DNA of 64,000 bases from Prostheceraeus crozeri. Its lineage: Eukaryota; Platyhelminthes; Polycladida; Euryleptidae. Under the pieces are notes generated by a model. That model did not search any database. It was not told the origin of the DNA and saw only the letters and a list, made by a program, of their open reading frames with translations. Below are positions 25,691 to 62,307 of this stretch, in pieces (position 1 is the first letter of the stretch; each line of letters begins with the position of its first letter). The stretch lies in contig CAJQUW010011496.1 in the NCBI GenBank assembly GCA_907163375.1, positions 1 to 64,000 of the forward strand, given 5' to 3'. The translations under genes and the position numbers were made by a program.

Positions 25691-28017
25691 CCGCACTTAA
25701 TGTGTGCAAACTACATGTAGGTCAACAGCTAATCCTTTTTATACTCCACCACTCGAATTAGCTTTCCCTGATGAGTCAGGCAGTGAAAATCGCATAAGGC
25801 CCTACTTCGTAAAGAATGAGTTCGCAATTTCACCAATATGCTACCCACGGTCATTTTTGACCCGGAAAGATTTAAACCTTAAGGTGTTATTAGCACTTGA
25901 AAAATTGAAAGCATGTTTTTGTAAGGGCAACCGAAGGAGAGGACACTTTACTGAGCTACTGTAATAACCGAGTTAATGAGTAGGGCCTACGTGTAAAGGA
26001 ATCACGAACCATACAAAATTCATTCATCACGGAGCCGGTCTCTTCTAGGCATTTACTCGTATATAGGCCTACGCATTTCTAGAAGATCGTATATAAGCCT
26101 CTCTACCCTGCGTTTTTATTGAAGTTATGAAGTATCTTATTATTACTAATCATGCAGTTCTTTCGCAACCCAAAACGTGAGCTTTGGATTTAATCATAAA
26201 TGTGAAATAAAAACACAACTGAAATTTTAACTTACCTTTTTCATGAAAATACACAAAATATAAACAGGTAGAAATACAGCATTTTGTAAAGAAATTACAA
26301 TATCAGTATAAGACTCAGTGACTAACTTGCTGCTGTCTGTCGTTAACCAAACTTTGAAAATCAGGCAGTTGAGAGGATGTCATTAAACGTAAACTATTCT
26401 CCAGATTGTTTTTAAGTGCGTCCGGTACTTGTTCTTTATGAACTTCAATTTAGAGAACGCTGCCTCGCAGGCGTATGTGTGCTTCCAAATAGAACTAAAA
26501 CCACAGAATTAGATTCATCTGCGCGCGCTTCGGTTTTCAAGAAAGGAAGAATTTTATGTAACCTTAATATCGAAATGGCACATCACAGAATTAGACAACT
26601 TGCTTCTTCTCGAATGGATAATTCGTGCATCGCTTGCTATTGGAAATGGAAAACAATAAGCTGTCAGCAGAGGACACCAGGGCCAGTGAGAGAGGCGTGA
26701 GTGCTGTGATATCACTTCGCACACACACCAAATCACACATCGATGCCCGGCTTCAATTCAGCGCATGCACTATAGTGAGCAATGCCGAGGAGAGGATGTG
26801 AAATCATCAAGTGAACTAATTTTCGTACGCCTGCTACTTTCTTTAATAATGATCGGAAGGGTCAACATTATGGAGAAAACTTGTGCGCAATGATCTGAAT
26901 TCTTCGAATCTGAAGGAATTTTGGCAATCGAAGCACTTTGCTGGAACTCACATTAATCCACAAGCGACGCACGACTTTTTTTCCTATGTCTGTAAGGTAT
27001 AAGGAATTCCTTTTTGCCCACTTAATAGGCTCCTCGATGTGCCGTCAATTTCGTATTAATCACACTTCTAGCAAACCGAAGCAGATAAACAAAATATTTA
27101 ATCCTGTGACTAAAACAGTTCGGACCAACTCTCGCAATCTTGGATATTCTACAGCTGATTTCCATATTTCATGTAAAATACCACCATTTTCGATCTGTTT
27201 CACAAGACAATCATTCGCCTTCAACTTGATCACTTCCATTTGAAGTTCGAATAGAACCTCTTCGATTTGGATCAGGTGTGGCAAGGCAACCAGTTTCATT
27301 TTAAGTGCAAGTGTGTTGAAGAAGTCGAACCGCGCATTAAATTCTTAGTTGATCGCATCAAAGACTTAGCAAAGTGACAGAAGGGAACGTATCCGGGTTT
27401 GATTTCTTCTTTCAAGAGCTCGGAAAGTTGAGGGAAGTGAAAATATTGTCGCTGCAGAATATGTTTCTTTAGAAAGCAGCATTTATCGGAGAACTCATGA
27501 ACCTTTCGATACAAGAAGCAGACTGTCAATGATTTCCCTTGCAAAGCAGTATTCAGGTTGTTGATGCACGTCAGAAGATCAACTAAAAATGCCAAAGAAA
27601 TAATTGAAGTCTCATCATCTAAAGGACAGTCGCGTAGAATAAAATGCACTTATTTCCTTTCGAAGTTGGAGAACACGAGACATCGCATCACCTTGAGACA
27701 ACCACCGGACAGACGTATGATACACGATATCTGCAGAATTTGCGCTGTCTTCTAAAAGTTGACGAAACTGGCGATGACAAAGTGCAGTTGAGCGAATGAA
27801 CACTATGATGCCTTGCTTTTTGCAGATGTCGTCAAAGTCAGCGATCCTAGCGCAGAGCACTTCTTGATGGATGATGCAGTTCAGCGAAATAACTGTGTCG
27901 ATTCGATGTTCCTCTTTCACTTGCTACTTTATTCGCGCAACGAAGCCACTTTCTTTTCCAACCATGGCAGGGGCTCCATCTGTGCACATGCCTCGTAAGT
28001 TGACTAGGTCTAACTTC

Positions 28018-35378: not shown

Positions 35379-37073
35379 TTGATATTTATTTACATGTGCA
35401 CATGGTTGGCAATCAAAGATCTAAAAAGAGACGATTCCATTATGATTGGTCCTGCTGATAAGGGGAATTGTGCTGTCGTTATGAACCGTTCTGATTATTT
35501 ACAGAAAATGTATACTATGCTTTCAGACTCTTCAACATACCAAATGATCAAGAAAGATCCTACGGCAAAGACAGAGAGAGACATGAATCGAATTCTACTC
35601 CGATTAAAGAGAGGGCAAATTCAATGATCGGCAATATTATGAAACCAGAAGTACTGATGCAAGTATTTCCCCAATTTATGGTTTGGTCAAGATACACAAG
35701 TTGGACTATCCTTTGAGAACAATAGTCTCCTTTTGTGGATCAGTGACATACAATTTGGCGAAACTGATTGCTTCTATTATTTCTCCACTGGTTGGAAATC
35801 AGAAACCAATGTCAGAAATGGTGGTTGAATTTTGTAATTTCCTGAAATCCGCACATATTCCAGAGGACTTAGAGATAGTATCGTGTGATGTAATTTCTTT
35901 GTTCACAAAAGTTCCGAGAGAATTGGCCGTTTCTGTGACAAAACAAAAACTTGAGATGGACCAAAACCTGGCTGAACGCACCTGTTTGACAGTGGATAAC
36001 ATCATTGAGCTGTTATCGTTTTGCCTGGAGGCTACTCAATTTTCTTTAAATGGCAACTTTTTATCGCCAAGTATTTGGCTGTGCCATGGGATCTCCTGTG
36101 TCTCCTATAATGGCAAATTTGACTATGGAGAGCGTTGAGAAACGCATGTTGTCTAACGCCAATTTCAATGTTCTCTATTGCAAACGTTTTGTCGATGACA
36201 CTTGGGTGGTGCTGCCTAAAGACAAGTTAGATGCCTTCATGAGTTCATCAATAAAGTCGAACCGTCTATTCAGTTTACCATGGAGAAAGAAGACGCAGAA
36301 CGGAAACTACCATTCCTTGATGTTGAGATACAGAGAAGGTTGGATGGTGGCATCAATTATACAGTTTATAGGAAATTAACTCACACCAACAAATATCTCA
36401 ACTTCCAATCACATCATCCTCCTGCACACAAACGGTCAGTGGTAAGAAGTCTGATGGATCGAGTCCAAACTCATTGCTCTGATCCACAGGACTCAGAAAC
36501 AGAAGCCCATCTGGTCGGGGGACGCGCTGAAAGGCTAATGGATATCATCACAATTTCATCAAGTCAAGTGGTGGATGTGGTCGTGCTGGTGAGACAAAGA
36601 CTGAGTGGAAATCTTCATGTTCTCTGCCCTATGTTTGTGGAGTCACTGACAAAGTAGCAAGAGTCTTGAGAGGCTGTAATGTCAACGTTCATTACCGTCC
36701 AGCTACCAGACTCTCAGATATCTTGCCCATTATCAAAGATCGGCCCCCTAAAGACAAGCGCAAAGGTGTGGTCTACAGACTGAACTGTAAGGACTGCGAA
36801 AAATGTTATGTGAGTCAAGCGGGAAATGCACTTTCTACTTGCGTGAAACAACACCGCTCCGCGAACAATCTTTGTCAGCCTGAGAAATCTGCCATTGCTG
36901 AACACGCAATCGATCAAGGTCATTGCATTGATTGGGGAAATCCGGAGATTCTTGTTCAACAAAGGCAGTACAGAGAGCGTCTATTTTTAGAATCAGTGCA
37001 CATCAGAAACAATGACTGTGTCAATAAAACAGAGCCGATTCCTTCCTGCTATCGAGGTCTGCTTCAGCAGTGA
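35379..37073 (+). pseudogene. Penelope-like element: RT and GIY-YIG nuclease
   Basis: Frames joined across at least four shifts read: IMIGPADKGNCAVVMNRSDY (RT entry, about 35440), YGLVKIHKLDYPLRTIVS (35680s), EIVSCDVISLFTKVP (A motif, catalytic Asp), FGCAMGSPVSPIMANLTMES (B motif, 36067-36126), CKRFVDDTWVVL (FVDD catalytic box, about 36180), FLDVEIQRRLDGGINYTVYR, then a Cys pair and CYVSQAGNAL where relatives have YxGxT, and the nuclease end to the stop at 37073. The RT is followed by the nuclease as usual in the group. The altered GIY-YIG signature and frameshifts make it inactive. It is inserted in the hAT-like element 33288-41931. Confidence 0.85.
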
Positions 37074-45810: not shown

Positions 45811-46166
45811 ATGAGAACAATGGTTCTATATAGGTTGAAAGGTGAATGTCTTACGTAACAAATCAATAAATTCAATGTACAATGGACTGAACAATGACAT
45901 GTATAATGAACATGAAGGAACAATACAGCTAGTGAAACTATAACTACAACTATTAGCAGACCTAAAAGTGCAGAGTTACCAGCAAGAAGAGTTTAGACAA
46001 CCAATAACTTGTTAAAGGCCTAACGCTAATCACATTAGCACCCTTTACACAATCTGAACTACAATTTTAAAAAAGACGACAATTATAGAACAACCCATCG
46101 AATTTCACTTGTTTGTTGAGTTTAGGATTCAATTTTTTAATGTAAAAAGCTTCTTTGTTATTGTAG

Positions 46167-47050
46167 GGGGGCGGGCGGCGCAAGGGGGCGGGGGGGCCAC
46201 CGGGGGAAAGGGGGGCCAGCGGCGGGGGGAGCGGGGGAGCGTGGCCAAACAGGCCCAAAGGGGGGGCGCGGGACAGGGGCGGGGCGGCCCGTGGCCCATG
46301 GGCAGACTGCCGCACGTCCGGGCCGAAGCGGCGGCGTGGGCAGGGGCGGGGGGGCCAGCAACAAGGGGCCTAAGGGGGTGCAAGGACCCGGGGGGCAATG
46401 CGGGGCCTGCAGGCGGGTTGCCCCCCAAAGGGGGGCAGGGGCGGGCGCGGGATGCGGGGGGGGGAAACGGGGGGGGGGGGGGGGCGGTGGCGCGGGGGCG
46501 GGTGGGTGCGGGGGGCAATACATGGGGGGGGGCGGAGGCACCCCGGGGGGGGGGGGGGACATGGGGCGCGGCAGGGCCGCAAGCGCCACACCCAAACGGC
46601 GGCGCGGCAAGGGGGCCAGCCCGCCCGGCAATAAAAAAGCGGCAAGGCAAAAAAAAAAAAGCGGGGCGGGGTGCCGGGCGGCCCAAATGGCGGCCAAATC
46701 CGCGGGGGGGCCAACAAATCCAGTCGCACCGGGGTCGAGGAGCACAAAAGGCAGCGCAAAGGCGGGGGGAGGGCAGGCCCCCGCGGGCTACCAACCGGGC
46801 GACAAATCCACCAGCAAGCTCGGGGGGGGGCGGGCGGGCCCGGCAACGGTGGCGGGCGTGTTGCGGGGGCCAAGGGGGGGCAAAACGCCCGGGGCGCCAC
46901 GCGGGGGGGCGTGGCAGGGGCCGGAACCAGTGGCGCACAAGGCAAAAGCGGGGGCGGGCGGGCAAGCAGCAAAGGGGGGCTAACGGCGGAGCCCGGTGCA
47001 AGTGGCCCGGACCGGCCAAATGGGGGGGCCCGGGGGCGGCGCAAAGGCAT
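46167..47050. other. Anomalous G-rich, T-depleted block
   Basis: About 880 bp consist almost only of G, C and A on the plus strand, with long G runs and very few T, in an otherwise AT-rich region. Sharp edges lie at about 46167 and 47050, with decayed Penelope-like sequence on the right. Long open frames cross it on both strands (346, 322, 230 and 230 codons), but they are Gly/Ala/Arg or Pro/Ala low-complexity products of base composition and are not genes. A consensus or base-calling artefact is the first explanation to exclude. Confidence 0.7.
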
Positions 47051-53404: not shown

Positions 53405-53749
53405 AGAAATGTGCGCTCCTGGCCCCACTTGTGCACCCCTGCCCCACGTATGAGCTTTTGCGGAATATGATTGTGCATTGATATGTACTGATGTGAAAGA
53501 AGTGCTATGGCTGTCAGAGAAACTCCAAATGCCTGGTCCGACGATTGCTGTAGGCCCTCAATTTTCGTATTTAGAGTTAGCTTTTGCGGAATATGATTGT
53601 GCTGTGATATATACTGATATGAATGAAGATATATGACAGTCAGAGCACCTCCAAATGCCTGGTCCGACGATTTCTGTAGGCCCTGGTCCCTTCATGTACA
53701 AGTGGGGCAGGAGAGTACAATTCTCGGTGGGGCAGGAGCGCACATTTCT
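53405..53749. mobile_element. MITE in a (TA)n tract, with internal tandem repeat
   Basis: A perfect 17-bp inverted repeat AGAAATGTGCGCTCCTG (53405-53421; complement 53733-53749) is flanked by TA (53403-53404, 53750-53751), as for Tc1/mariner-type MITEs. Inside, a segment of about 105 bp (from AGCTTTTGCGGAATATGATT to GTAGGCCCT) occurs twice, at about 53452 and 53578, a 126-bp period. No coding. Confidence 0.8.
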
Positions 53750-53772: not shown

Positions 53773-54870
53773 ATTTCAAAACCATCGTTCTCAGCAGTGA
53801 GATTTTATTCCGGACATGTTTCGGTATTTGATGTCATACCATCATCAGCGTTACAATCAAATGGTAAAAGCAGATACGAAATGGCTTATATACAAAAATG
53901 AAAAACTATGGTGAAATTTACAAATGAAGTCTGATTGGGTGAGATCCACTCCTCTCGTTAGCAAGTGTGTCAAAGTTGCTTTTGATCAATATCGTTTCTA
54001 GAATTTTAGGAAATTTAGTTCTACCGACGATGCTGAAATTCTCACGTGACGGATTGTGCACGTGCATAGATATCCCTGTAGGGGTCGGTTTACCAGAAAT
54101 GTGCTCGTTTATCCGAGTGGCTAAATGGCGTGTTGTAACGCCAACGTATCGCATTTGGCAGCGATCACAGTTGTAAAGGTACACAATATTAGATTTAAGC
54201 TCACTCGAAATAGCATCAACGTTCTGACAAAAATCAAGGGTTTTCAGAGTTTTGAAAATCAATCTAATTTTCAAGTTTTCAGGTAACGATTTATTGACAG
54301 TATAAATGCGTTTCTTTAGCTCTTCGACACGCTTGCTAAGAAAAGGGACATTCCAGTGAATAAATTTTAGATCATTCTCATGCTCGGTGTGTCTATTATT
54401 CGGCTTGCGTTCAACCTCATATTTGATTTTCAGCATTAACTTATCAGAGTAGCCATTCAACCGACTGAATTTCAAAATATCATCAATGACGTTATTTTTA
54501 ATGAATTCGTGAGAGCAAATACGGAAAGCTCGATAGAATAAAGAGCGGAAAGCCGCTACTTTATAAGAAAAAGGAGCCATTGCAGACGAAGGAATATACA
54601 TTCCGGTATTTGTATCTTTAAATGCAAAAGAGACAAATAAATCGCCATGATCAATGGTTACTTTTGTATCTAAAAACCTCAAGGAATCGTCTGACTGATA
54701 ATCAACAGTAAATTTGATGCTATCAATGTTCTGACAAAAATCAAGGGTTTTCAGAGTTTTGAAAATCAATCTAATTTTCAAGTTTTCAGTAACGATTTAT
54801 TGACAGTATAAATGCGTTTCTTTAGCTCTTCGGCACGCTTGCTAAGAAAAGGGACATTCCAGTGAATAAA
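53773..54870 (-). pseudogene. Penelope-like family A, inverted 3' fragment
   Basis: The minus frame 53918-54781 (287 codons) encodes the end of the RT (LRFLDTKVTIDHGDLFVSFA, RSLFYRAFRICSHEF), the linker (FIHWNVPFLSKRVEELKKRI) and the complete GIY-YIG nuclease (CDRCQMRYVGVTTRHLATRI, ending ...HPIRLHL). The 3' flank follows to 53773. A linker segment of about 145 bp is present twice, at about 54225-54370 and 54725-54868, so a rearrangement joined them. The palm is missing. Identity to the plus copies is very high by eye, so the cluster is young. Confidence 0.9.
53813..53848 (-). ncRNA. Hammerhead-like ribozyme motif, PLE 3' flank
   Basis: On the minus strand: CTGATGA, one T, stem GGTAT/ATACC around GACATCAA, then GAAAC-AT-GTC, the tiny stem III plus cleavage triplet GTC. 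Stem I would be weak (two GC pairs, then an internal loop). The extra U before stem II departs from the canonical fold. Hammerheads in Penelope-like ends are known; activity here is untested. Confidence 0.65.
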
Positions 54871-54872
54871 TT

Positions 54873-56437
54873 TCGTCTGGATCTCAGCCAGCGCGTCTTT
54901 AATGGATTGCCGCGAAAGTTCATAAAAGTAATACTGCCCCGCCCTACCGGCCGAGTCTAAACCTGAAAGATTCATATAAGAGCAATTTGTCGGAGTATCT
55001 TTGTCATCTATTGAAGCCATACTTACCAAAAACTTTTGTCATTAAAGACACGTTTGAGTTCGTTGATGAGATCAAAAAGTTTGATCTTGCTCAATTCGAA
55101 ACTGCAGAAATGTGCAGTTTTGATGTGACGAACTTATTTGGTGACGTTCCCGTGTCCAAAACCATTGATCAATATTTTGACGTTAATTGATTTTGATAAC
55201 TTCGACCTTTCTCGAACAGCTTTGAAAGAGTTGCTAAGTTTAGCGTGCACCAACATTATTTTTTTCTTTTAATGGCAATCTCTATACTCAGTTTGACGGT
55301 ATGGCTATGGGCTCGAAACTGGGTCCTACCATGGCTGCTTTCGCCATGGACAGTATGGAGCGCAATTCAAAAATTTTTCAGGCAACCAGCCGTTGTTTTA
55401 CAAAAGATATGTCGACGACTGTTTTTGCATTTTCGTAATAGAAAAGATAAGAAATTGATGAATTTTCTTGAGTTTATTGTATCAATTCGTTGAGCAACAG
55501 CATCAAATTTACTGTTGATTATCAGTCAGCGAGCACGATTCCTTGAGGTTTTTAGATACAAAAGTAGCCATTGATCATGGCGATTTATTTGTCTCTTTTG
55601 CATTTAAAGATACAAATACCGGAATGTATATTCCTTCGTCTGCAATGGCTCCTTTTTCTTATAAAGTAGCGGCTTTCCGCTCTTTATTCTATCGAGCTTT
55701 CCGTATTTGCTCTCACGAATTCATTAAAAATAACGTCATTGATGATATTTTGAAATTCAGTCGGTTGAATGGCTACTCTGATAAGTTAATGCTGAAAATC
55801 AAATATGAGGTTGAACGCAAGCCGAATAATAGACACACCGAGCATGAGAATGATCTAAAATTTATTCACTGGAATGTCCCTTTTCTTAGCAAGCGTGTCG
55901 AAGAGCTAAAGAAACGCATTTATACTGTCAATAAATCGTTACCTGAAAACTTGAAAATTAGATTGATTTTCAAAACTCTGAAAACCCTTGATTTTTGTTA
56001 GAACGTTGATGCTATTTCGAGTGAGCCTAAATCTAATATTGTGTACCTTTACAACTGTGATTGCTGCCAAATGCGATACGTTGGCGTTACAACACGCCAT
56101 TTAGCCACTCGGATAAACGAGCACATTTCTGGTAAACCGACCCCTACAGGGATATCTATGCACGTGCACAATCCGTCACGTGAGAATTTCAGCATCGTCG
56201 GTAGAACTAAATTTCCTAAAATTCTAGAAACGATATTGATCAAAAGCAACTTTGACACACTTGCTAACGAGAGGAGTGGATCTCACCCAATCAGACTTCA
56301 TTTGTAAATTTCACCATAGTTTTTCATTTTTGTATATAAGCCATTTCGTATCTGTTTTTACCATTTGATTGTAACGCTGATGATGATATGACATCAAATA
56401 CCGAAACATGTCCGGAATAAAATCTCACTGCTGAGAA
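54873..56437 (+). pseudogene. Penelope-like family A, 5'-truncated plus copy
   Basis: It starts inside the RT (SGSQPARLYGLPKVHK equivalent, frame-damaged) and reads FVIKDTFEFVDEIKKFDLAQ, MCSFDVTNLFGDVPVSKTID (A motif), GLAMGSKLGPTMAA-type B motif with shifts, a damaged YVDD (55412), then an open RT end and linker (55543-56001), a stop at 55999 (CAG to TAG) and the GIY-YIG (56041-56307). The 3' flank carries a hammerhead-like motif. It is nearly identical to 57425-58918, including the same T-run frameshift. Confidence 0.9.
56377..56412 (+). ncRNA. Hammerhead-like ribozyme motif, PLE junction
   Basis: CTGATGA (56377-56383), stem II weakened by a G to A change compared with 53813-53848 (GATAT/ATACC), GAAAC and ATGTC (to 56412). 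It sits between the truncated and the fuller tandem copies, where a pseudo-LTR hammerhead is expected in Penelope-like arrays. Confidence 0.6.
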
Positions 56438-56439
56438 CG

Positions 56440-58842
56440 ATGGTTTTGAAAAATATTACCCTGGGCGATCTTTCTTTGAAATTTATTTATTCAGCATTAG
56501 GCCCGCACACTCGCAAATTGGTAAATTCTACGATTCGCATTGCTGGCAAACATCTCCGAGCCGAACTTCGAGTCAAATGTCTAACAAAGCATCTGGTTCC
56601 AAAGTTCGCAAGATTCAAGGTTCCAGAAGCTCTCCAATCTTCCAAGTCTGCTATTCGCAAGGCTCACAGAAAGACCTTACAGAAGAATTTGGATGACGCC
56701 AACAAAGATGTAAGATTAAAATCTTACTTGGTGAGTGAATCTCTCAAGGCTTTTAGTGACAAAGAGAGTACTATGGTTCAGGCTATCCTGGAGCATAAAA
56801 TGAAACATTTAAGGACTCGAATTGAAAGTCTTCACTCTCGTAAACTTTCGTCTTTAGCAAAGAGTCAGAATCCTGTGATTCCTCCTTCTGATAGGAAGCA
56901 CAGTGGCACCTCTGTCATTAATCTTTCTTCATACAATTTGTCAGATGAAGAAATAGAGATCTTGTCTCGGTGTGTCTATGTGTTGGCCTAGAACTAAAGT
57001 TAATATGAACATTCAGAAAGCTGAAGCTGAGTCCCTTGTGCACCAGCTCAATCTAATTGATTCCAAATTGATCACAGATGATTTTCTGAGCAAAATACGT
57101 AATGCTTTCAAAAGTTATTTTTCTAGGAATGCTGTTCCTAAGATTTGGTTGAACAAAATCAAACGTCTTCGTGATTTATGCCGTAAGAAAGACATTGTGA
57201 TTTCAAAATTTGACCAAGGAAATGGCATTCTCATAGATGATAAAGATACCTATTTGAAAAAGATGGGTTCCATCCTATCTGATTCCACCAAGTTTAAATT
57301 GTACGTCGTTGACAAGCGCTGTAAGAAAAATCCCTTCATTTTTGAAGAGGATAAATTCAACAGAAAATTGGTTGAATTTGAAAAGAAAAAGTACATTAGC
57401 AGAGCCATTTCGTTAAAAATCAAATCGTCTGGATCTCAGCCAGCGCGTCTTTATGGATTGCCGAAAGTTCATAAAAGTAATACTGACCCGCCCTACCGGC
57501 CGATTCTAAACATGAAAGATTCATATAAGAGCAATTTGTCGGAGTATCTTTGTCATCTATTGAAGCCATACTTACCAAAAACTTTTGTCATTAAAGACAC
57601 GTTTGAGTTCGTTGATGAGATCAAAAAGTTTGATCTTACTCAATTCGAAACTGCAGAAATGTGCAGTTTTGATGTGACGAACTTATTTGGTAACGTTCCC
57701 GTGTCCAAAACCATTGATCATATTTTGACGTTAATTGATTTTGATAACTTCGACCTTTCTCGAACAGCTTTGAAAGAGTTGCTAAGTTTAGCGTGCACCA
57801 ACATTATTTTTTTCTTTTAATGGCAATCTCTATACTCAGTTTGACGGTATGGCTATGGGCTCGAAACTGGGTCCTACCATGGCTGCTTTCGCCATGGACA
57901 GTATGGAGCGCAAATTCAAAAATTTTTCAGGCAACCAGCCGTTGTTTTACAAAAGATATGTCGACGACTGTTTTTGCATTTTTCGTAATAGAAAAGAAAT
58001 TGAGAATTTTCTTGAGTTTATCAATTCGTTGAGCAACAGCATCAAATTTACTGTTGATTATCAGTCAGACGATTCCTTGAGGTTTTTAGATACAAAAGTA
58101 ACCATTGATCATGGCGATTTATTTGTCTCTTTTGCATTTAAAGATACAAATACCGGAATGTATATTCCTTCGTCTGCAATGGCTCCTTTTTCTTATAAAG
58201 TAGCGGCTTTCCGCTCTTTATTCTATCGAGCTTTCCGTATTTGCTCTCACGAATTCATTAAAAATAACGTCATTGATGATATTTTGAAATTCAGTCGGTT
58301 GAATGGCTACTCTGATAAGTTAATGCTGAAAATCAAATATGAGGTTGAACGCAAGCCGAATAATAGACACACCGAGCATGAGAATGATCTAAAATTTATT
58401 CACTGGAATGTCCCTTTTCTTAGCAAGCGTGTCGAAGAGCTAAAGAAACGCATTTATACTGTCAATAAATCGTTACCTGAAAACTTGAAAATTAGATTGA
58501 TTTTCAAAACTCTGAAAACCCTTGATTTTTGTCAGAACGTTGATGCTATTTCGAGTGAGCTTAAATCTAATATTGTGTACCTTTACAACTGTGATCGCTG
58601 CCAAATGCGATACGTTGGCGTTACAACACGCCATTTAGCCACTCGATAAACGAGCACATTTCTGGTAAACCGACCCCTACAGGGATATCTATGCACGTGC
58701 ACAATCCGTCACGTGAGAATTTCAGCATCGTCGGTAGAACTAAATTTCCTAAAATTCTAGAAACGATATTGATCAAAAGCAACTTTGACACACTTGCTAA
58801 CGAGAGGAGTGGATCTCACCCAATCAGACTTCATTTGTAAAT
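56440..58842 (+). pseudogene. Nearly complete Penelope-like element, family A
   Basis: N-terminal frame 56440-56991 (basic, ending LSDEEIEILSR); a one-base shift near 56975; RT frame 56972-57820 with IVISKFDQGNGILIDDKDTY, LYGLPKVHKSNTDPPYRPIL and MCSFDVTNLFGNVP (A motif Asp); a one-base loss or gain in a T run near 57810; frame 57849-58649 with MAMGSKLGPTMAAFAMDSME, YKRYVDDCFCIF (catalytic YVDD), RT end, linker, and CDRCQMRYVGVTTRHLATR; a one-base deletion near 58647; nuclease end at the stop 58840. All catalytic boxes are kept; only three single-base shifts break it, so sequencing error should be considered. Confidence 0.9.
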
Positions 58843-58918: not shown

Positions 58919-58930
58919 CAGGGTGATATA

Positions 58931-60343
58931 CAGGGTGATTCAGTTCAGCCCGCCGGTAATAAAATAAGTGGTCTTTGATGGTTATTCGATATCTATGTAA
59001 GTTTCTGACAGCAAGAAAACGTCATCACGATATTGAATTGGCAATGAGATAATGCTGCATTGATTTCAAATTGCTACTTGCATAGATAGCTGTCTCGGGC
59101 AAGCTGTTATTAAATAGCATTTCTTCATAATTCAGTACAAAAGTCATTTCTGTCTATGCGAGATGAATTATCCTGGCTTCACTTATGAAGAAATCGCTGA
59201 TGTTGTGTCATGTTCTATTGCGTTTGATAATTGCGAAGCAGCACGAAGAGCATTCAATGAAAAATATAGAAAAGAAGCCCCACCTGTGAGAACCATTCGA
59301 GATTGGAGAATGCGGTTTAATCAAACTCTTAGTGTGCTTCCTATGAAGCATTCTGGTGGTCCTGGTAAGAGTCGACTATCTGAAGAAAAACAAAAAGAAA
59401 TTGTTGAAGCGTTTGGAGACAATCCGTGTAATTCACAGCGGATAGTTGCGGCGCAGCTCGACACGTCCCAATCATCGGTGCAAAGAGTATTATGCAATAA
59501 TAAGATTAAACCATTCAAATTTAGTCGAGTGCAAGAACTGAAGGAAATGGATTTCGAGCCTCGGTTGAATTTCTGCCGCACCGTTTTGCAGATGAACGAC
59601 GAAAATTCTGGCTGGTATCGAAAGATTGCATTCAGTGATGAAGCAGTTCTTCATTTAAATGGACAAGTAAATCTGCATAATTGTTTTTATTATGCAATGG
59701 AGAACCCACATAAGACATGCGCAAAGCCCCTCAAATCTCCATCAATTTGTTTTTGGGCAATGATTACTTTTGACTATGGCCTTGTTCATCAAGTCATTGA
59801 TGGAACAGTAACTAGTGAAAATTATTGTGATCTTCTTCAACAAACTGTTATCCCACTCCTTCGGAGAAAGCGGACATTGATTTACCAACAAGACGGAGCT
59901 CCGGCTCATTTCAGTCACGATGCAAGAGCACTGCTGAAAAAAAATCTTCAAGATCGCTGGATTGGTAGAGGTGGTCCACGGAATTGGCCATCTCGTAGTC
60001 CTGACTTAGCGATGAACGATTTTTGGTTATGGGGATACGCCCGGGATCATATCTACAAATCTCCAAGGCCAGAATCCATACATGAGCTGAGATATCGAAT
60101 TGAAACAGTGTTGGATTCCATTGACAAGCATACGATAAGACGCGTGTACACCAATTTCTTCAAGCGCTGTGAAGTATGTGTATCAGTACAGGGTGCTCAT
60201 TTCGAACACTTGTTGTGACTTCGTGAGCAGAAAATGATTCTAACTTTGTTAATAATACATTTTTGTAAGTTTTTGGAATAAATGCTAATAAATAGCAATA
60301 CCTGTGTCTAAACGCCATTCATTTTATTACCGGCGGGCTGAAC
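58931..60343 (+). mobile_element. Mariner-like element, DD41D type
   Basis: The left end starts CAGGGTGATTCAGTTCAGCC after a TA (58929-58930). GTTCAGCCCGCCGGTAATAA and its complement form the inverted repeat; the right side ends ...CCGGCGGGCTGAAC at 60343 and lacks the outermost bases, so the right end is truncated or overlapped by the next repeat. The transposase frame inside is intact. Confidence 0.8.
59163..60218 (+). CDS. Mariner-like transposase, intact, DD41D spacing
   Basis: An uninterrupted frame of 351 codons starts at ATG 59163 in the mariner-like element. Residues 1-110 contain two helix-turn-helix regions (EEIADVVSCSIAFDNCEAAR; AAQLDTSQSSVQRVLCNN). The catalytic core shows IAFSDEAVLHLNG (first Asp), YQQDGAPAHFSHDARALL (second Asp) and SPDLAMNDFWLWG (third Asp). 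Counting residues between second and third Asp gives 41, the spacing of the DD41D (rosa-like) branch of IS630-Tc1-mariner. The WVPHEL/YSPDL signatures of classic mariner are absent or altered. It should make a full transposase; whether the truncated right end can still be cut is doubtful. Confidence 0.85.
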   Translation: MNYPGFTYEEIADVVSCSIAFDNCEAARRAFNEKYRKEAPPVRTIRDWRMRFNQTLSVLPMKHSGGPGKSRLSEEKQKEIVEAFGDNPCNSQRIVAAQLDTSQSSVQRVLCNNKIKPFKFSRVQELKEMDFEPRLNFCRTVLQMNDENSGWYRKIAFSDEAVLHLNGQVNLHNCFYYAMENPHKTCAKPLKSPSICFWAMITFDYGLVHQVIDGTVTSENYCDLLQQTVIPLLRRKRTLIYQQDGAPAHFSHDARALLKKNLQDRWIGRGGPRNWPSRSPDLAMNDFWLWGYARDHIYKSPRPESIHELRYRIETVLDSIDKHTIRRVYTNFFKRCEVCVSVQGAHFEHLL

Positions 60344-60345
60344 AG

Positions 60346-60490
60346 ATGGTCCGGTGGCCTTGTGGTTAGAGGGCATGCTTGCACGTCTTCTAGCTCCAAC
60401 GTCGCTGGTTCAAACCTACCCACGACTGATGAGGCCCAACAGGCCGAAACATGTCTCGTGGTGGTTACATCTGTTGAGATTTGATCAAGG
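60346..60490 (+). repeat. tRNA-like/hammerhead composite element, copy 1
   Basis: The unit opens ATGGTCCGGTGGCCTTGTGG (A-box region, about 60353-60368) and has a good B box GGTTCAAACC at 60407-60416. A hammerhead begins four bases later (60420-60461). The unit then runs to ATCTGTTGAGATTTGAT. Copy 2 at 61165-61305 matches it along about 145 bp with about six differences, so the whole composite moves as one unit. It resembles SINE-like hammerhead elements such as the Schistosoma satellite and metazoan retrozymes, in which a Pol III promoter drives a self-cleaving RNA. Confidence 0.75.
60420..60461 (+). ncRNA. Hammerhead ribozyme, complete core
   Basis: Stem I: CCACGA (60420-60425) with TCGTGG (60456-60461), six pairs. 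Core CTGATGA (60426-60432). Stem II: GGCC (60433-60436) with GGCC (60442-60445), loop CAACA. GAAA (60446-60449), stem III of two pairs (A-C with G-T around AT), then GTC with predicted cleavage after C60455. All conserved core bases are present. The very short stem III suggests it works best as a dimer, as described for Penelope-like and retrozyme hammerheads. Confidence 0.85.
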
Positions 60491-61164
60491 AGATTTAGAT
60501 AATATATTAGATGGAAATTACGATCAGATGGAAACATGTGAAAGATATTCCTGAAGAGGCACTATTATCATACCCTGATTTACAATGTGGTACACTGCAT
60601 TTGTTGACCATTGTCAGGTTTCGAACTGGTTGATGAAGTCGTAACAACTAAAATAATGTCACATTCACAGGACGACGAGTGAGCGAAAGCAACATTCACG
60701 CTACAGAAGCAGTAAACAAATGGCGAACTGGTGAGAAAGTCTGCAAGTCAACACTGTTTGACACTCATGCATGATGACTCAGTGCAGTACGGTCGGAGTC
60801 GACAGGATTGTTTTCCCTGAAGCTAATCAATAAGCATCAACACGCTTACTCGCTAGTCGCTATTGTCATACAACAGCGCGTTAATCGTCCTGTGAGACTT
60901 CAGGTCACAGTAGTCCTTTGTGCTGATCTATGTGGTAAATCCTGCAGGATAAACAGCCGAAGTTTCCACTCCTGTTCGTATCTAGATCTCCTTGGATTTG
61001 ATAAATTTATAAGTTGCCAGGTTACTTGTCTAAACATGTAATGAGTAGCGCCTGCGTGAAGCGCCTCAATCTCGGATGCGGTATTAAGTGATTGCAGAAA
61101 GCAGTCCGCCCTCCACGTGCCTGCGTTAAAGCAGTGCCTTCCTGGCTAATTCACGCTCTCAACA
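60491..61164. other. No recognised gene between the composite elements
   Basis: It holds short open frames only (60808-61041, plus). No motif or terminal repeat recognised. Confidence 0.4.
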
Positions 61165-61305
61165 GAATGGTCCGGTGGCCTTGTGGTTAGAGAGAATGCT
61201 TGCACGTCCTCTAGCTCCAACGTCGCTGGTTCAAACCTACCCACGACTGATGAGGCCCAACAGGCCGACACATGTCTCGTGGTGAGTACATCTGTTGAGA
61301 TTTGA

Positions 61306-61335
<30 letters not shown>
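61165..61335 (+). repeat. tRNA-like/hammerhead composite element, copy 2
   Basis: Same order as copy 1: GGTCCGGTGGCCTTGTGG head, GGTTCAAACC B box, hammerhead at 61241-61282, ATCTGTTGAGATTTGAT, then a (TA)n run (about 61306-61335) that may be its tail. The run joins directly to the minus-strand Penelope-like fragment. Confidence 0.75.
61241..61282 (+). ncRNA. Hammerhead ribozyme, core mutated
   Basis: Stem I, CTGATGA, stem II and GTC are as in copy 1, but GAAA reads GACA (A to C at 61269). That adenine is part of the conserved core, so this copy is predicted to be inactive. Confidence 0.75.
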
Positions 61336-61336
<1 letters not shown>

Positions 61337-62307
61337 TTAACTGTTCTTATTTCGTTATCAAAGGATGACCAATCTGAACACAAAGACAAAGCTCGATGAA
61401 TATAGCTCTTGATGACAGAAATCTTGTAGCGCTCAGTTGTGAAGGAATTGAAATCAAGGCAAGTACCACCCGAAACCTTTTTCCGATAAACCGAGAATGT
61501 TAGGATATCATCACGTTTGACAAGAACATCCAAAAATTGTAACGTGCCATTCGTCTCAATGTCAAAGGTGAATTCTAAAACCGAGTTTTCTTTGAATCTA
61601 TCAATAATGAAGTTAAGATGATCATGTGATTGCAAAATAAGAAAGGTATCATCAACGTATCGAAAATAACATCTCGGTTTCACCTCACTTGGAAGATTGG
61701 AGAAAACTTGATTTTCAATGTAGGACATATAAAAATTGGCATAGAGAGGGCCAAGTGGTGAGCCCATGGAAACACCATCAATTTGCTTGTATAACTGCCC
61801 ATTCCAAGTAAACGGAGTTTGGGTTGTACAAAGTAGCAATAATTTCTCCATAATAGACTTAGGTATGCTGGGGGATGGAAGATTTGGATGCGAGTATAAT
61901 CTGGACAAGATAATATGTGTAGTTTCAATGACTGGAACATTAGTAAGGAGTCCGACGACATCCACTGAAGCCATCTTCCACTCAAGTTGCTGAGAGACAT
62001 CGATTTATTTACGAAATCAAAGGATGAGTCAGTCATGGAAGAAGAATCACAATAAGGCTTGATCAACCCACTCAAGTATTGACTTAACTCGTGAGTAACA
62101 GTTCCAACCATAGAAATAATTGGTCGAAGAGGAGGATCAGAAACACTTTTATTAACTTTAGGTAAACCGTAAAGGAATACCGGCCGAAAGTATGCGGTTG
62201 GTTTTTTGATTTTGATATTGTTGGATGAATTTGCAATGACATTATTCAATTCGCGCTTGAGTTTATCAGTTGGGTCACTTTGTAATGGTAGGAATTTCGA
62301 AGTGTCC
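61336..62307 (-). pseudogene. Penelope-like RT fragment, family B
   Basis: The minus strand reads SKFLPLQSDPTDKLKRELNN, VFLYGLPKVNKSVSDPPLRP and QYLSGLIKPYCDSSSMTDSS; after a shift near 61985, MASVDVVGLLTNVPVIETTH (A motif), YKQIDGVSMGSPLGPLYANF (B motif), CYFRYVDDTFLIL (catalytic YVDD), TLQFLDVLVKRDDILTFSVY and HRALSLCSDWSSFDNEI, where it runs into (TA)n at 61335. The RT core is nearly whole; the N-terminus (past 62307) and nuclease are missing. Sequence differs from family A. Both edges are (TA)n tracts. Confidence 0.85.

What the first reader, a model, noticed from the sequence alone, without database searches (positions are those of the whole stretch)
60346..61335. A Pol III-type head fused to a hammerhead ribozyme in a mobile unit
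Two copies of a roughly 145-bp unit carry an A box, a good B box and, four bases later, a hammerhead fold with all core bases in copy 1 (60420-60461). The tight joining and the conserved borders suggest a SINE-like retrozyme, whose Pol III transcript would cut itself and could circularise. Copy 2 has a core mutation (GAAA to GACA at 61269), showing natural decay. Comparable composites are known in schistosomes and other metazoans; this sequence looks like its own family.
Basis: partly seen in the sequence, partly recalled or inferred. Interest (0 to 1): 0.85.

Follow-up and report, generated by a model that had tools for sequence, protein, structure and literature searches.

The report
Self-cutting RNA element with tRNA-like head
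A short repeated DNA element in what looks like an animal genome joins a tRNA-like gene switch to a small RNA that can probably cut itself; such composites are known from blood flukes, so this looks like a further family of a known kind, and the two copies here are damaged.

Summary
Two copies of a ~145-bp unit (60341-60485, 61161-61306; 95% identical) carry tRNA-like A and B boxes and, 3 bases later, a type I hammerhead, with all core bases in copy 1 and A14 changed to C (61269) in copy 2. Rfam finds it at E 1.3e-4 (HH9), below the gathering score. The head is tRNA-like in sequence (yardstick recalled), not as a cloverleaf. Copy 1 folds as one closed RNA.

It works like schistosome Sm-alpha/Sj-alpha SINEs, or a retrozyme with a built-in promoter. 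This locus should not make circles today: one intact ribozyme, and a TTTT before copy 2. No target duplication was found; copy number, host, RNA and cleavage could not be tested.

The parts
60341..60485 (+). Copy 1 of the tRNA-headed hammerhead unit (main part; the 3' end continues at 61003-61011 after an insertion)
   Evidence: 95.2% identical to copy 2 over 146 columns; fold z -3.9, 0 of 200 shuffles as stable
60348..60416 (+). tRNA-like head: 7 bases GGTCCGG, A box 60355-60365, B box 60407-60416
   Evidence: letters; local alignment to 14 recalled human tRNAs, best score 32, 1 of 500 shuffles and 0 of 1000 window pieces reach it; no tRNA by ARAGORN or Rfam
60413..60466 (+). Type I hammerhead ribozyme, core intact; predicted cut between 60455 and 60456
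   Evidence: Rfam HH9 33.5 bits, E 1.3e-4 over the window, below gathering; helix I and II pair probabilities 0.62-1.0 in copy 1
60449..60454 (+). ACATGT, self-complementary helix III; too short for a good hairpin, suited to a dimer
   Evidence: letters; energies of dimer and monomer folds
60468..60475 (+). CATCTGTT, pairs with the unit's first 8 bases AACAGATG (60341-60348)
   Evidence: pair probabilities 0.79-1.0
60478..60485 (+). GATTTGAT, target duplication of the hAT-like insertion (second copy 60995-61002)
   Evidence: copy 2 shows the uninterrupted site at 61299-61306
60486..60994 (.). 509-bp non-autonomous hAT-like insertion, ends CAAGGAGATnTAGATA (15 of 16 alike)
   Evidence: the hAT label rests on the 8-bp duplication and is an inference
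61003..61160 (.). 158-bp spacer between the copies once the insertion is discounted; begins with copy 1's tail AAATTTATA
   Evidence: no second full copy in the window; folding support for its belonging to the element inconclusive
61161..61306 (+). Copy 2 of the unit, hammerhead core broken (A14 is C at 61269); flank TCTC 61157-61160 extends the end stem
   Evidence: Rfam HH9 25.9 bits, E 0.039
61307..61335 (+). AT-repeat tail of copy 2, abutting a truncated reverse-transcriptase (Penelope-like) frame on the minus strand

Best explanation
The unit is a short non-autonomous retroelement: a tRNA-derived Pol III head whose body is a type I hammerhead, with an AT-rich tail. Inferred steps: Pol III starts near the first base of the unit, 14 bases before the A box, and reads through until a chance T run. 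The hammerhead cuts after C 60455. Because helix III is only the palindrome ACATGT, cutting should be most efficient when two hammerheads pair, either in two transcripts or in one transcript that spans two copies. Two cuts in one transcript would release a unit with 5'-OH and cyclic-phosphate ends that a host ligase could close; reverse transcription by a partner element (Penelope-like or LINE) would give new copies. Shown by sequence: the two copies, the boxes, the core, the insertion, the broken core of copy 2. Predicted by computation: the fold. Inferred: transcription, cleavage, circle, mobility. This locus today is a relic: copy 1 could cut its own transcript once, but it should not make a circle.
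For: Two 95% copies with different flanks but the same ends (AACAG at the start; GATTTGATAAAT-TATA at the end). tRNA-like head. Hammerhead with all core bases and an internal loop in helix I. Closed fold of copy 1 with an 8-bp end stem, 0 of 200 shuffles as stable. No TTTT inside either unit; the first on the + strand after copy 1's start is at 60811. A palindromic helix III: a double-hammerhead dimer evaluates at -40.6 kcal/mol, against -12.0 for the monomeric hammerhead fold; a weak helix III and dimeric action are described for type I hammerheads (PMC7761336 and PMC6155905, passages read).
Against: Only two copies, in one window. No target duplication for either copy or for the pair: best shared words are 4-5 bases, equalled by 63%, 98% and 70% of random pairs. 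The hammerhead is below Rfam's gathering score. No cloverleaf. Copy 2's fold is little better than chance (16 of 200 shuffles as stable). The dimer's advantage is small against the monomer's best free fold: -19.3 each, so -38.6 for two, and the best free fold of two strands (-41.4) is not the double hammerhead; tertiary contacts are not modelled. The monomer's best fold disturbs the core. No RNA data.
Confidence: 0.72

Rival explanations
1. (A special case of the best explanation.) The pair is one retrozyme insertion of about one and a half units: a 304-bp repeat (unit plus the 158-bp spacer) in tandem, later split by the hAT-like insertion. A transcript over both hammerheads would have released a 304-nt RNA able to circularise.
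For: Cut site to cut site is 304 nt once the insertion is discounted, within the 170-400 nt of animal retrozymes (PMC7229834, abstract and sections 13, 14, 17 read). No TTTT lies between the copies outside the insertion. The spacer's last bases TCTC extend copy 2's end stem against GAGA. 2 of 200 shuffles of the whole 304-nt circle are as stable.
Against: With only the spacer shuffled, 19 of 300 circles are as stable, and 2 of 57 with window pieces of like G+C as spacer; the spacer alone folds no better than chance (25 of 200). So the spacer itself is not clearly selected. No target duplication around the pair.
Confidence: 0.3
2. (The other special case.) Two independent SINE-like insertions that happen to lie 158 bp apart; no circle is or was made here, and the hammerhead only trims a Pol III transcript.
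For: Both copies end in an AT-rich tail at the same place; the spacer has no other match in the window beyond a 20-base one.
Against: Nothing excludes the tandem reading; same strand, close spacing, and no target duplication for either copy.
Confidence: 0.45
3. A DNA-transposon-like repeat (MITE) whose inverted ends AACAGATG / CATCTGTT move it, with boxes and hammerhead as passengers.
For: 8-bp inverted ends in copy 1; 10 bp TCTCAACAGA / TCTGTTGAGA in copy 2.
Against: Sequence shared by the copies runs past the 3' arm to an AT tail; no target duplication; the arms fit a closing stem of the RNA equally well.
Confidence: 0.07
4. Chance resemblance: a repeat of another kind that happens to match a hammerhead and the boxes.
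For: The Rfam score is below gathering; no cloverleaf.
Against: Descriptor mean 0.01 per 64 kb in 200 simulations (pattern written after seeing the sequence); Rfam E 1.3e-4 over the window; boxes and hammerhead occur together in both copies.
Confidence: 0.04

Closest known systems
Sm-alpha and Sj-alpha SINE-like elements of Schistosoma (Ferbeyre 1998 and Laha 2000 not read; known here through passages of PMC2770079, PMC8490949, PMC4918200 and PMC3653858)
   Same: Short non-coding repeat with a type I hammerhead and, in Sm-alpha, a tRNA-related part; Penelope-like elements in the same genome (S. japonicum, PMC3653858 passage)
   Different: The Sm-alpha-like W36.2 element is 335 bp (PMC8490949) and schistosome repeats carry a full tRNA-Gln (PMC4918200); here the unit is about 150 bp, no cloverleaf is found, tRNA-Gln is not the best match (score 22 against 32 for Ile), the inner helix I starts 3 bases after the B box, and the B box's AACC pairs with GGTT as outer helix I. 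Sequence comparison with Sm-alpha could not be run.
Metazoan non-LTR retrozymes (PMC7229834 abstract and sections 13, 14, 17; PMC4918200 section 10)
   Same: Type I hammerhead with weak helix III, small self-paired RNA, repeated copies a few hundred bp apart
   Different: PMC7761336 (passage read) says retrozymes seem to harbour no promoter; this unit has Pol III-type boxes. (Later papers report a promoter in a plant retrozyme LTR: PMC9695139, PMC12029980, listing only.) No intact tandem repeat here.
Minimal hammerheads of Penelope-like elements and Terminons (PMC7761336 and PMC6155905, passages)
   Same: Very short helix III, likely dimeric action; a Penelope-like frame lies next to copy 2
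   Different: This hammerhead has a helix I internal loop and lies beside, and on the other strand from, the adjoining frame.
Hammerhead HH9 (Rfam RF02275)
   Same: Best-scoring model, including the UACC stretch in helix I
   Different: Below its gathering score; the resemblance is of ribozyme shape, not evidence of descent.

Membership tests
Hammerhead ribozyme, type I | Core CUGANGA, GAA, H at the cut, three helices, open helix I | tested here: met
   Copy 1 letters, Rfam E 1.3e-4 though below gathering, descriptor; copy 2 fails at A14
Hammerhead ribozyme, type I | Self-cleavage | not testable with these tools
   needs in vitro transcription
tRNA-derived SINE | tRNA-related head with A and B boxes | tested here: met
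   by sequence: (yardstick tRNAs recalled); by cloverleaf not found
tRNA-derived SINE | Many dispersed copies | not testable with these tools
   no host genome held; 2 copies in the window
tRNA-derived SINE | Target-site duplications | tested here: not met
   no repeat above chance at either copy or around the pair; both loci are rearranged, so older duplications may be lost
tRNA-derived SINE | A-rich or simple-repeat 3' tail | tested here: met
   AT tail after copy 2 (61307 to about 61335); AAATTTATA after copy 1
Sm-alpha / Sj-alpha | Sequence similarity to the schistosome elements | not testable with these tools
   their sequences were not in any paper or collection I could read
Metazoan retrozyme | Tandem repeats of 150-450 bp, each with a type I hammerhead | tested here: inconclusive
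   two copies 821 bp apart, 304 once the insertion is discounted; second unit incomplete
Metazoan retrozyme | Circular RNA | not testable with these tools
   no RNA reads available
hAT-like non-autonomous transposon (60486-60994) | Terminal inverted repeats and 8-bp target duplication | tested here: met
   15 of 16 end bases alike; GATTTGAT on both sides; empty site in copy 2; no transposase, so other 8-bp-duplication families are not excluded

The most novel reading that the evidence does not exclude
A retrozyme that carries its own Pol III promoter outside the schistosomes: a ~150-nt RNA in which the B box itself forms part of the outer helix I of the hammerhead, so that promoter and ribozyme share bases, and the palindromic helix III makes cutting depend on a second copy. 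This would supply the promoter that animal retrozymes are said to lack and would limit cutting to conditions of high transcript level or tandem copies.
Probability: 0.25. Interest if true: 0.6.

Novelty: new member of a known kind. Interest (0 to 1): 0.42.

Why it matters
Animal retrozymes make abundant small circles (PMC7229834), yet how they are transcribed is open: a review states that they seem to have no promoter (PMC7761336, passage read). Among animal hammerhead repeats, one survey reports a tRNA only in schistosomes (PMC4918200, section 10 read). A second tRNA-headed family would help to show whether the fusion arose once or repeatedly, and it is compact enough for direct tests of Pol III-driven cleavage.

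Tried and rejected
Host genome: none held. Relatives: core, head and gapped-ribozyme patterns gave 0 stretches in viral contigs, and a B box plus core pattern gave 0 in genome contigs. A loose B box plus hammerhead-core pattern gave 1 stretch in viral contigs and 9 in genome contigs. Of these 10, 5 begin in the 3' part of an ARAGORN tRNA gene (L001, L003, L005, L006, L007). 0 of 10 has an Rfam hammerhead at gathering score (the window's own hammerhead fails that score too, so this alone is weak), 0 of the 5 without an ARAGORN tRNA has one at E up to 5, and 0 of 10 passes my structural descriptor, which the window's copy 1 passes. They are rejected as chance. Mariner-like and Penelope-like proteins: 2 and 3 stretches matched a peptide pattern in viral contigs, none encoded a relative by tblastn. 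A search of the fetched loci for the core gave 0 of 10.

Minimal hammerheads elsewhere in the window: the loose core pattern gives 2 matches, 60426 and one at 25768, and 26 of 100 shuffles give as many; only 60426 passes the structural descriptor. Target duplications: none above chance. The missing outer end of the mariner's right repeat was sought with up to 3 mismatches; 6 matches, none after either copy. The missing C-terminal part of the reverse-transcriptase frame beside copy 2 was not found in the window by tblastn with its closest relative there. Pfam: 4 of 10 frames sampled across the window have hits (RVT_1 twice, DDE_3 twice; one of each pair is below the curated cut-off); they do not name the host. 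Paper searches for tRNA-headed hammerhead SINEs surfaced only the schistosome ones; most subscription papers are missing from the library.

In one search the printed end-stem probabilities use a wrong offset and are void; one search repeats them correctly.

Full report
What is there. The two copies exist. Copy 1 is 60341-60485 plus a short tail at 61003-61011; copy 2 is 61161-61306 plus an AT tail to about 61335. They differ at 6 bases and 1 indel in 146 columns. One substitution is the A14 to C change in the hammerhead of copy 2 (61269), two are in its outer helix I, and three lie in the head. The sequences upstream of AACAG and downstream of the tail differ between the copies, so the borders are shared ends. 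Comparing one pair of copies cannot tell a unit's end from the end of a partial tandem insertion.

Head. Seven bases, GGTCCGG (60348-60354), are followed by an A box TGGCCTTGTGG (60355-60365) and a B box GGTTCAAACC (60407-60416). In a tRNA gene the A box starts at about base 8, as here, and the unit begins 14 bases before the A box, where Pol III usually starts (both general knowledge). ARAGORN and Rfam see no tRNA. In sequence, the head aligns with tRNAs from the D loop to the B box, with two gaps: the best of 14 recalled human tRNAs (Ile) scores 32; 1 of 500 shuffled heads (best of 14) and 0 of 1000 window pieces reach that. tRNA-Gln, the type named for Sm-alpha, scores 22, equalled by 10 of 500 shuffles. 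I read the head as a decayed, tRNA-derived Pol III head, which now folds as one long hairpin. Function of the boxes is inferred.

Ribozyme. The hammerhead is type I: helix I CCACGA/TCGTGG, an internal loop of TAC against T, then AACC/GGTT; helix II GGCC/GGCC with loop CAACA; core CTGATGA, GAA, cut after C 60455. Rfam's HH9 model aligns over its full length with 33.5 bits (E 2.7e-6 in 1.3 kb; 1.3e-4 over the window), under the gathering score of 52. The outer strand AACC is the end of the B box, so promoter element and ribozyme share bases. Helix III is the six bases ACATGT: as a hairpin it leaves 1-2 pairs, as a duplex of two copies it gives 6. A double-hammerhead dimer evaluates at -40.6 kcal/mol, against -12.0 for one monomeric hammerhead fold. 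Against this, the monomer's best free fold, which disturbs the core, is -19.3 (so -38.6 for two), and the best free fold of two strands, -41.4, is not the double hammerhead. Tertiary contacts are not modelled. Weak helix III and dimeric action are described for type I hammerheads (PMC7761336 and PMC6155905, passages read). In such a dimer, by the geometry of the fold (inference), the intact core of copy 1 would act on the cut site of copy 2, not on its own.

Whole unit. Copy 1 folds as a closed structure: AACAGATG/CATCTGTT end stem with pair probabilities 0.79-1.0, head hairpin and hammerhead region; -57.5 kcal/mol, z -3.9, 0 of 200 shuffles as stable. Copy 2 is weaker (z -1.5, 16 of 200). In copy 2 the flank TCTC lengthens the end stem against GAGA, which hints that the true 5' end may lie a few bases further out and that copy 1 lost it at its junction with the mariner-like element.

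Surroundings. Between 60486 and 60994 lies a 509-bp element with inverted ends (15 of 16) and an 8-bp duplication GATTTGAT on both sides; copy 2 shows the uninterrupted site. It reads as a non-autonomous hAT-like insertion, so the copies were once 304 bp apart. Copy 1's first base follows directly on a mariner-like element whose right inverted repeat is cut short: the left repeat has the outer TACAGGGTGATTCA, and its complement is not found after either copy. Copy 2's AT tail abuts a reverse-transcriptase frame on the minus strand (61237-62004; RVT_1 E 2.4e-6, 27.9 bits against a cut-off of 29.6). I call it Penelope-like from recalled features of that family; Pfam says only reverse transcriptase. 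Its C-terminal part is absent from the other side. Neither copy nor the pair has a target duplication above chance.

How it probably works. From the anatomy: Pol III transcription, read-through to a chance T run (no TTTT in either unit; the first are at 60811 and 61478), self-cutting at 60455/60456, and copying by a partner reverse transcriptase. Whether circles form depends on the arrangement. If the 158-bp spacer is part of the element, a transcript over both copies, before the insertion and the A14 change, would have been cut twice into a 304-nt RNA. 2 of 200 shuffles of that circle are as stable, but with only the spacer shuffled 19 of 300 equal it, and 2 of 57 with window pieces; this does not settle it. 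Today a copy 1 transcript should stop at 60811, before copy 2, and copy 2 is core-defective, so no circle is expected from this locus.

Known relatives. Sm-alpha and Sj-alpha of schistosomes are SINE-like elements with a hammerhead; Sm-alpha is related to tRNA-Gln-TTG (PMC2770079 passages), and the Sm-alpha hammerhead is active (PMC8490949 section 11). A survey of animal hammerhead repeats reports a tRNA only in the schistosome ones (PMC4918200 section 10). Retrozymes of a coral, a mussel and the axolotl make circles (PMC7229834, abstract and sections 13, 14 and 17), and they are said to seem to lack promoters (PMC7761336 passage). The unit here works like these and meets several defining features, but target duplications are unmet, and copy number and sequence relation to Sm-alpha are untested. 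I file it as a probable new family of the tRNA-headed hammerhead SINE kind. The host is not identified: no genome is held, and the mariner-like, Tc1-like and Penelope-like frames (labels partly recalled) say only that it is probably an animal. If the host were a schistosome or close kin, the element would be ordinary; if not, it would extend a combination so far reported, in what I could read, from schistosomes alone.

Noticed in passing
60486-60994: 509-bp hAT-like non-autonomous element with 15/16 inverted ends and 8-bp target duplication GATTTGAT, inserted in the 3' end of copy 1.
   Followed up: yes
58929-60340: Mariner-like element with a long open frame (59118-60218; HTH_32, DUF4817 and DDE_3, all below their cut-offs); its right inverted repeat is cut short at copy 1.
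   Followed up: partly
53918-58649: Three related reverse-transcriptase (Penelope-like) pieces, one inverted, 81% and 97% identical in protein to the 57792-58646 piece, with a 126-bp tandem repeat at 53453-53684 beside them.
   Followed up: no
46166-47050: About 880 bases nearly free of T and rich in G runs inside AT-rich DNA; looks like a low-quality stretch of the assembly rather than biology.
   Followed up: partly
35608-37073: A second, more distant Penelope-like family in frame-shifted pieces, with a possible GIY-YIG-like end (recalled motif; no Pfam hit for 36531-37073).
   Followed up: no
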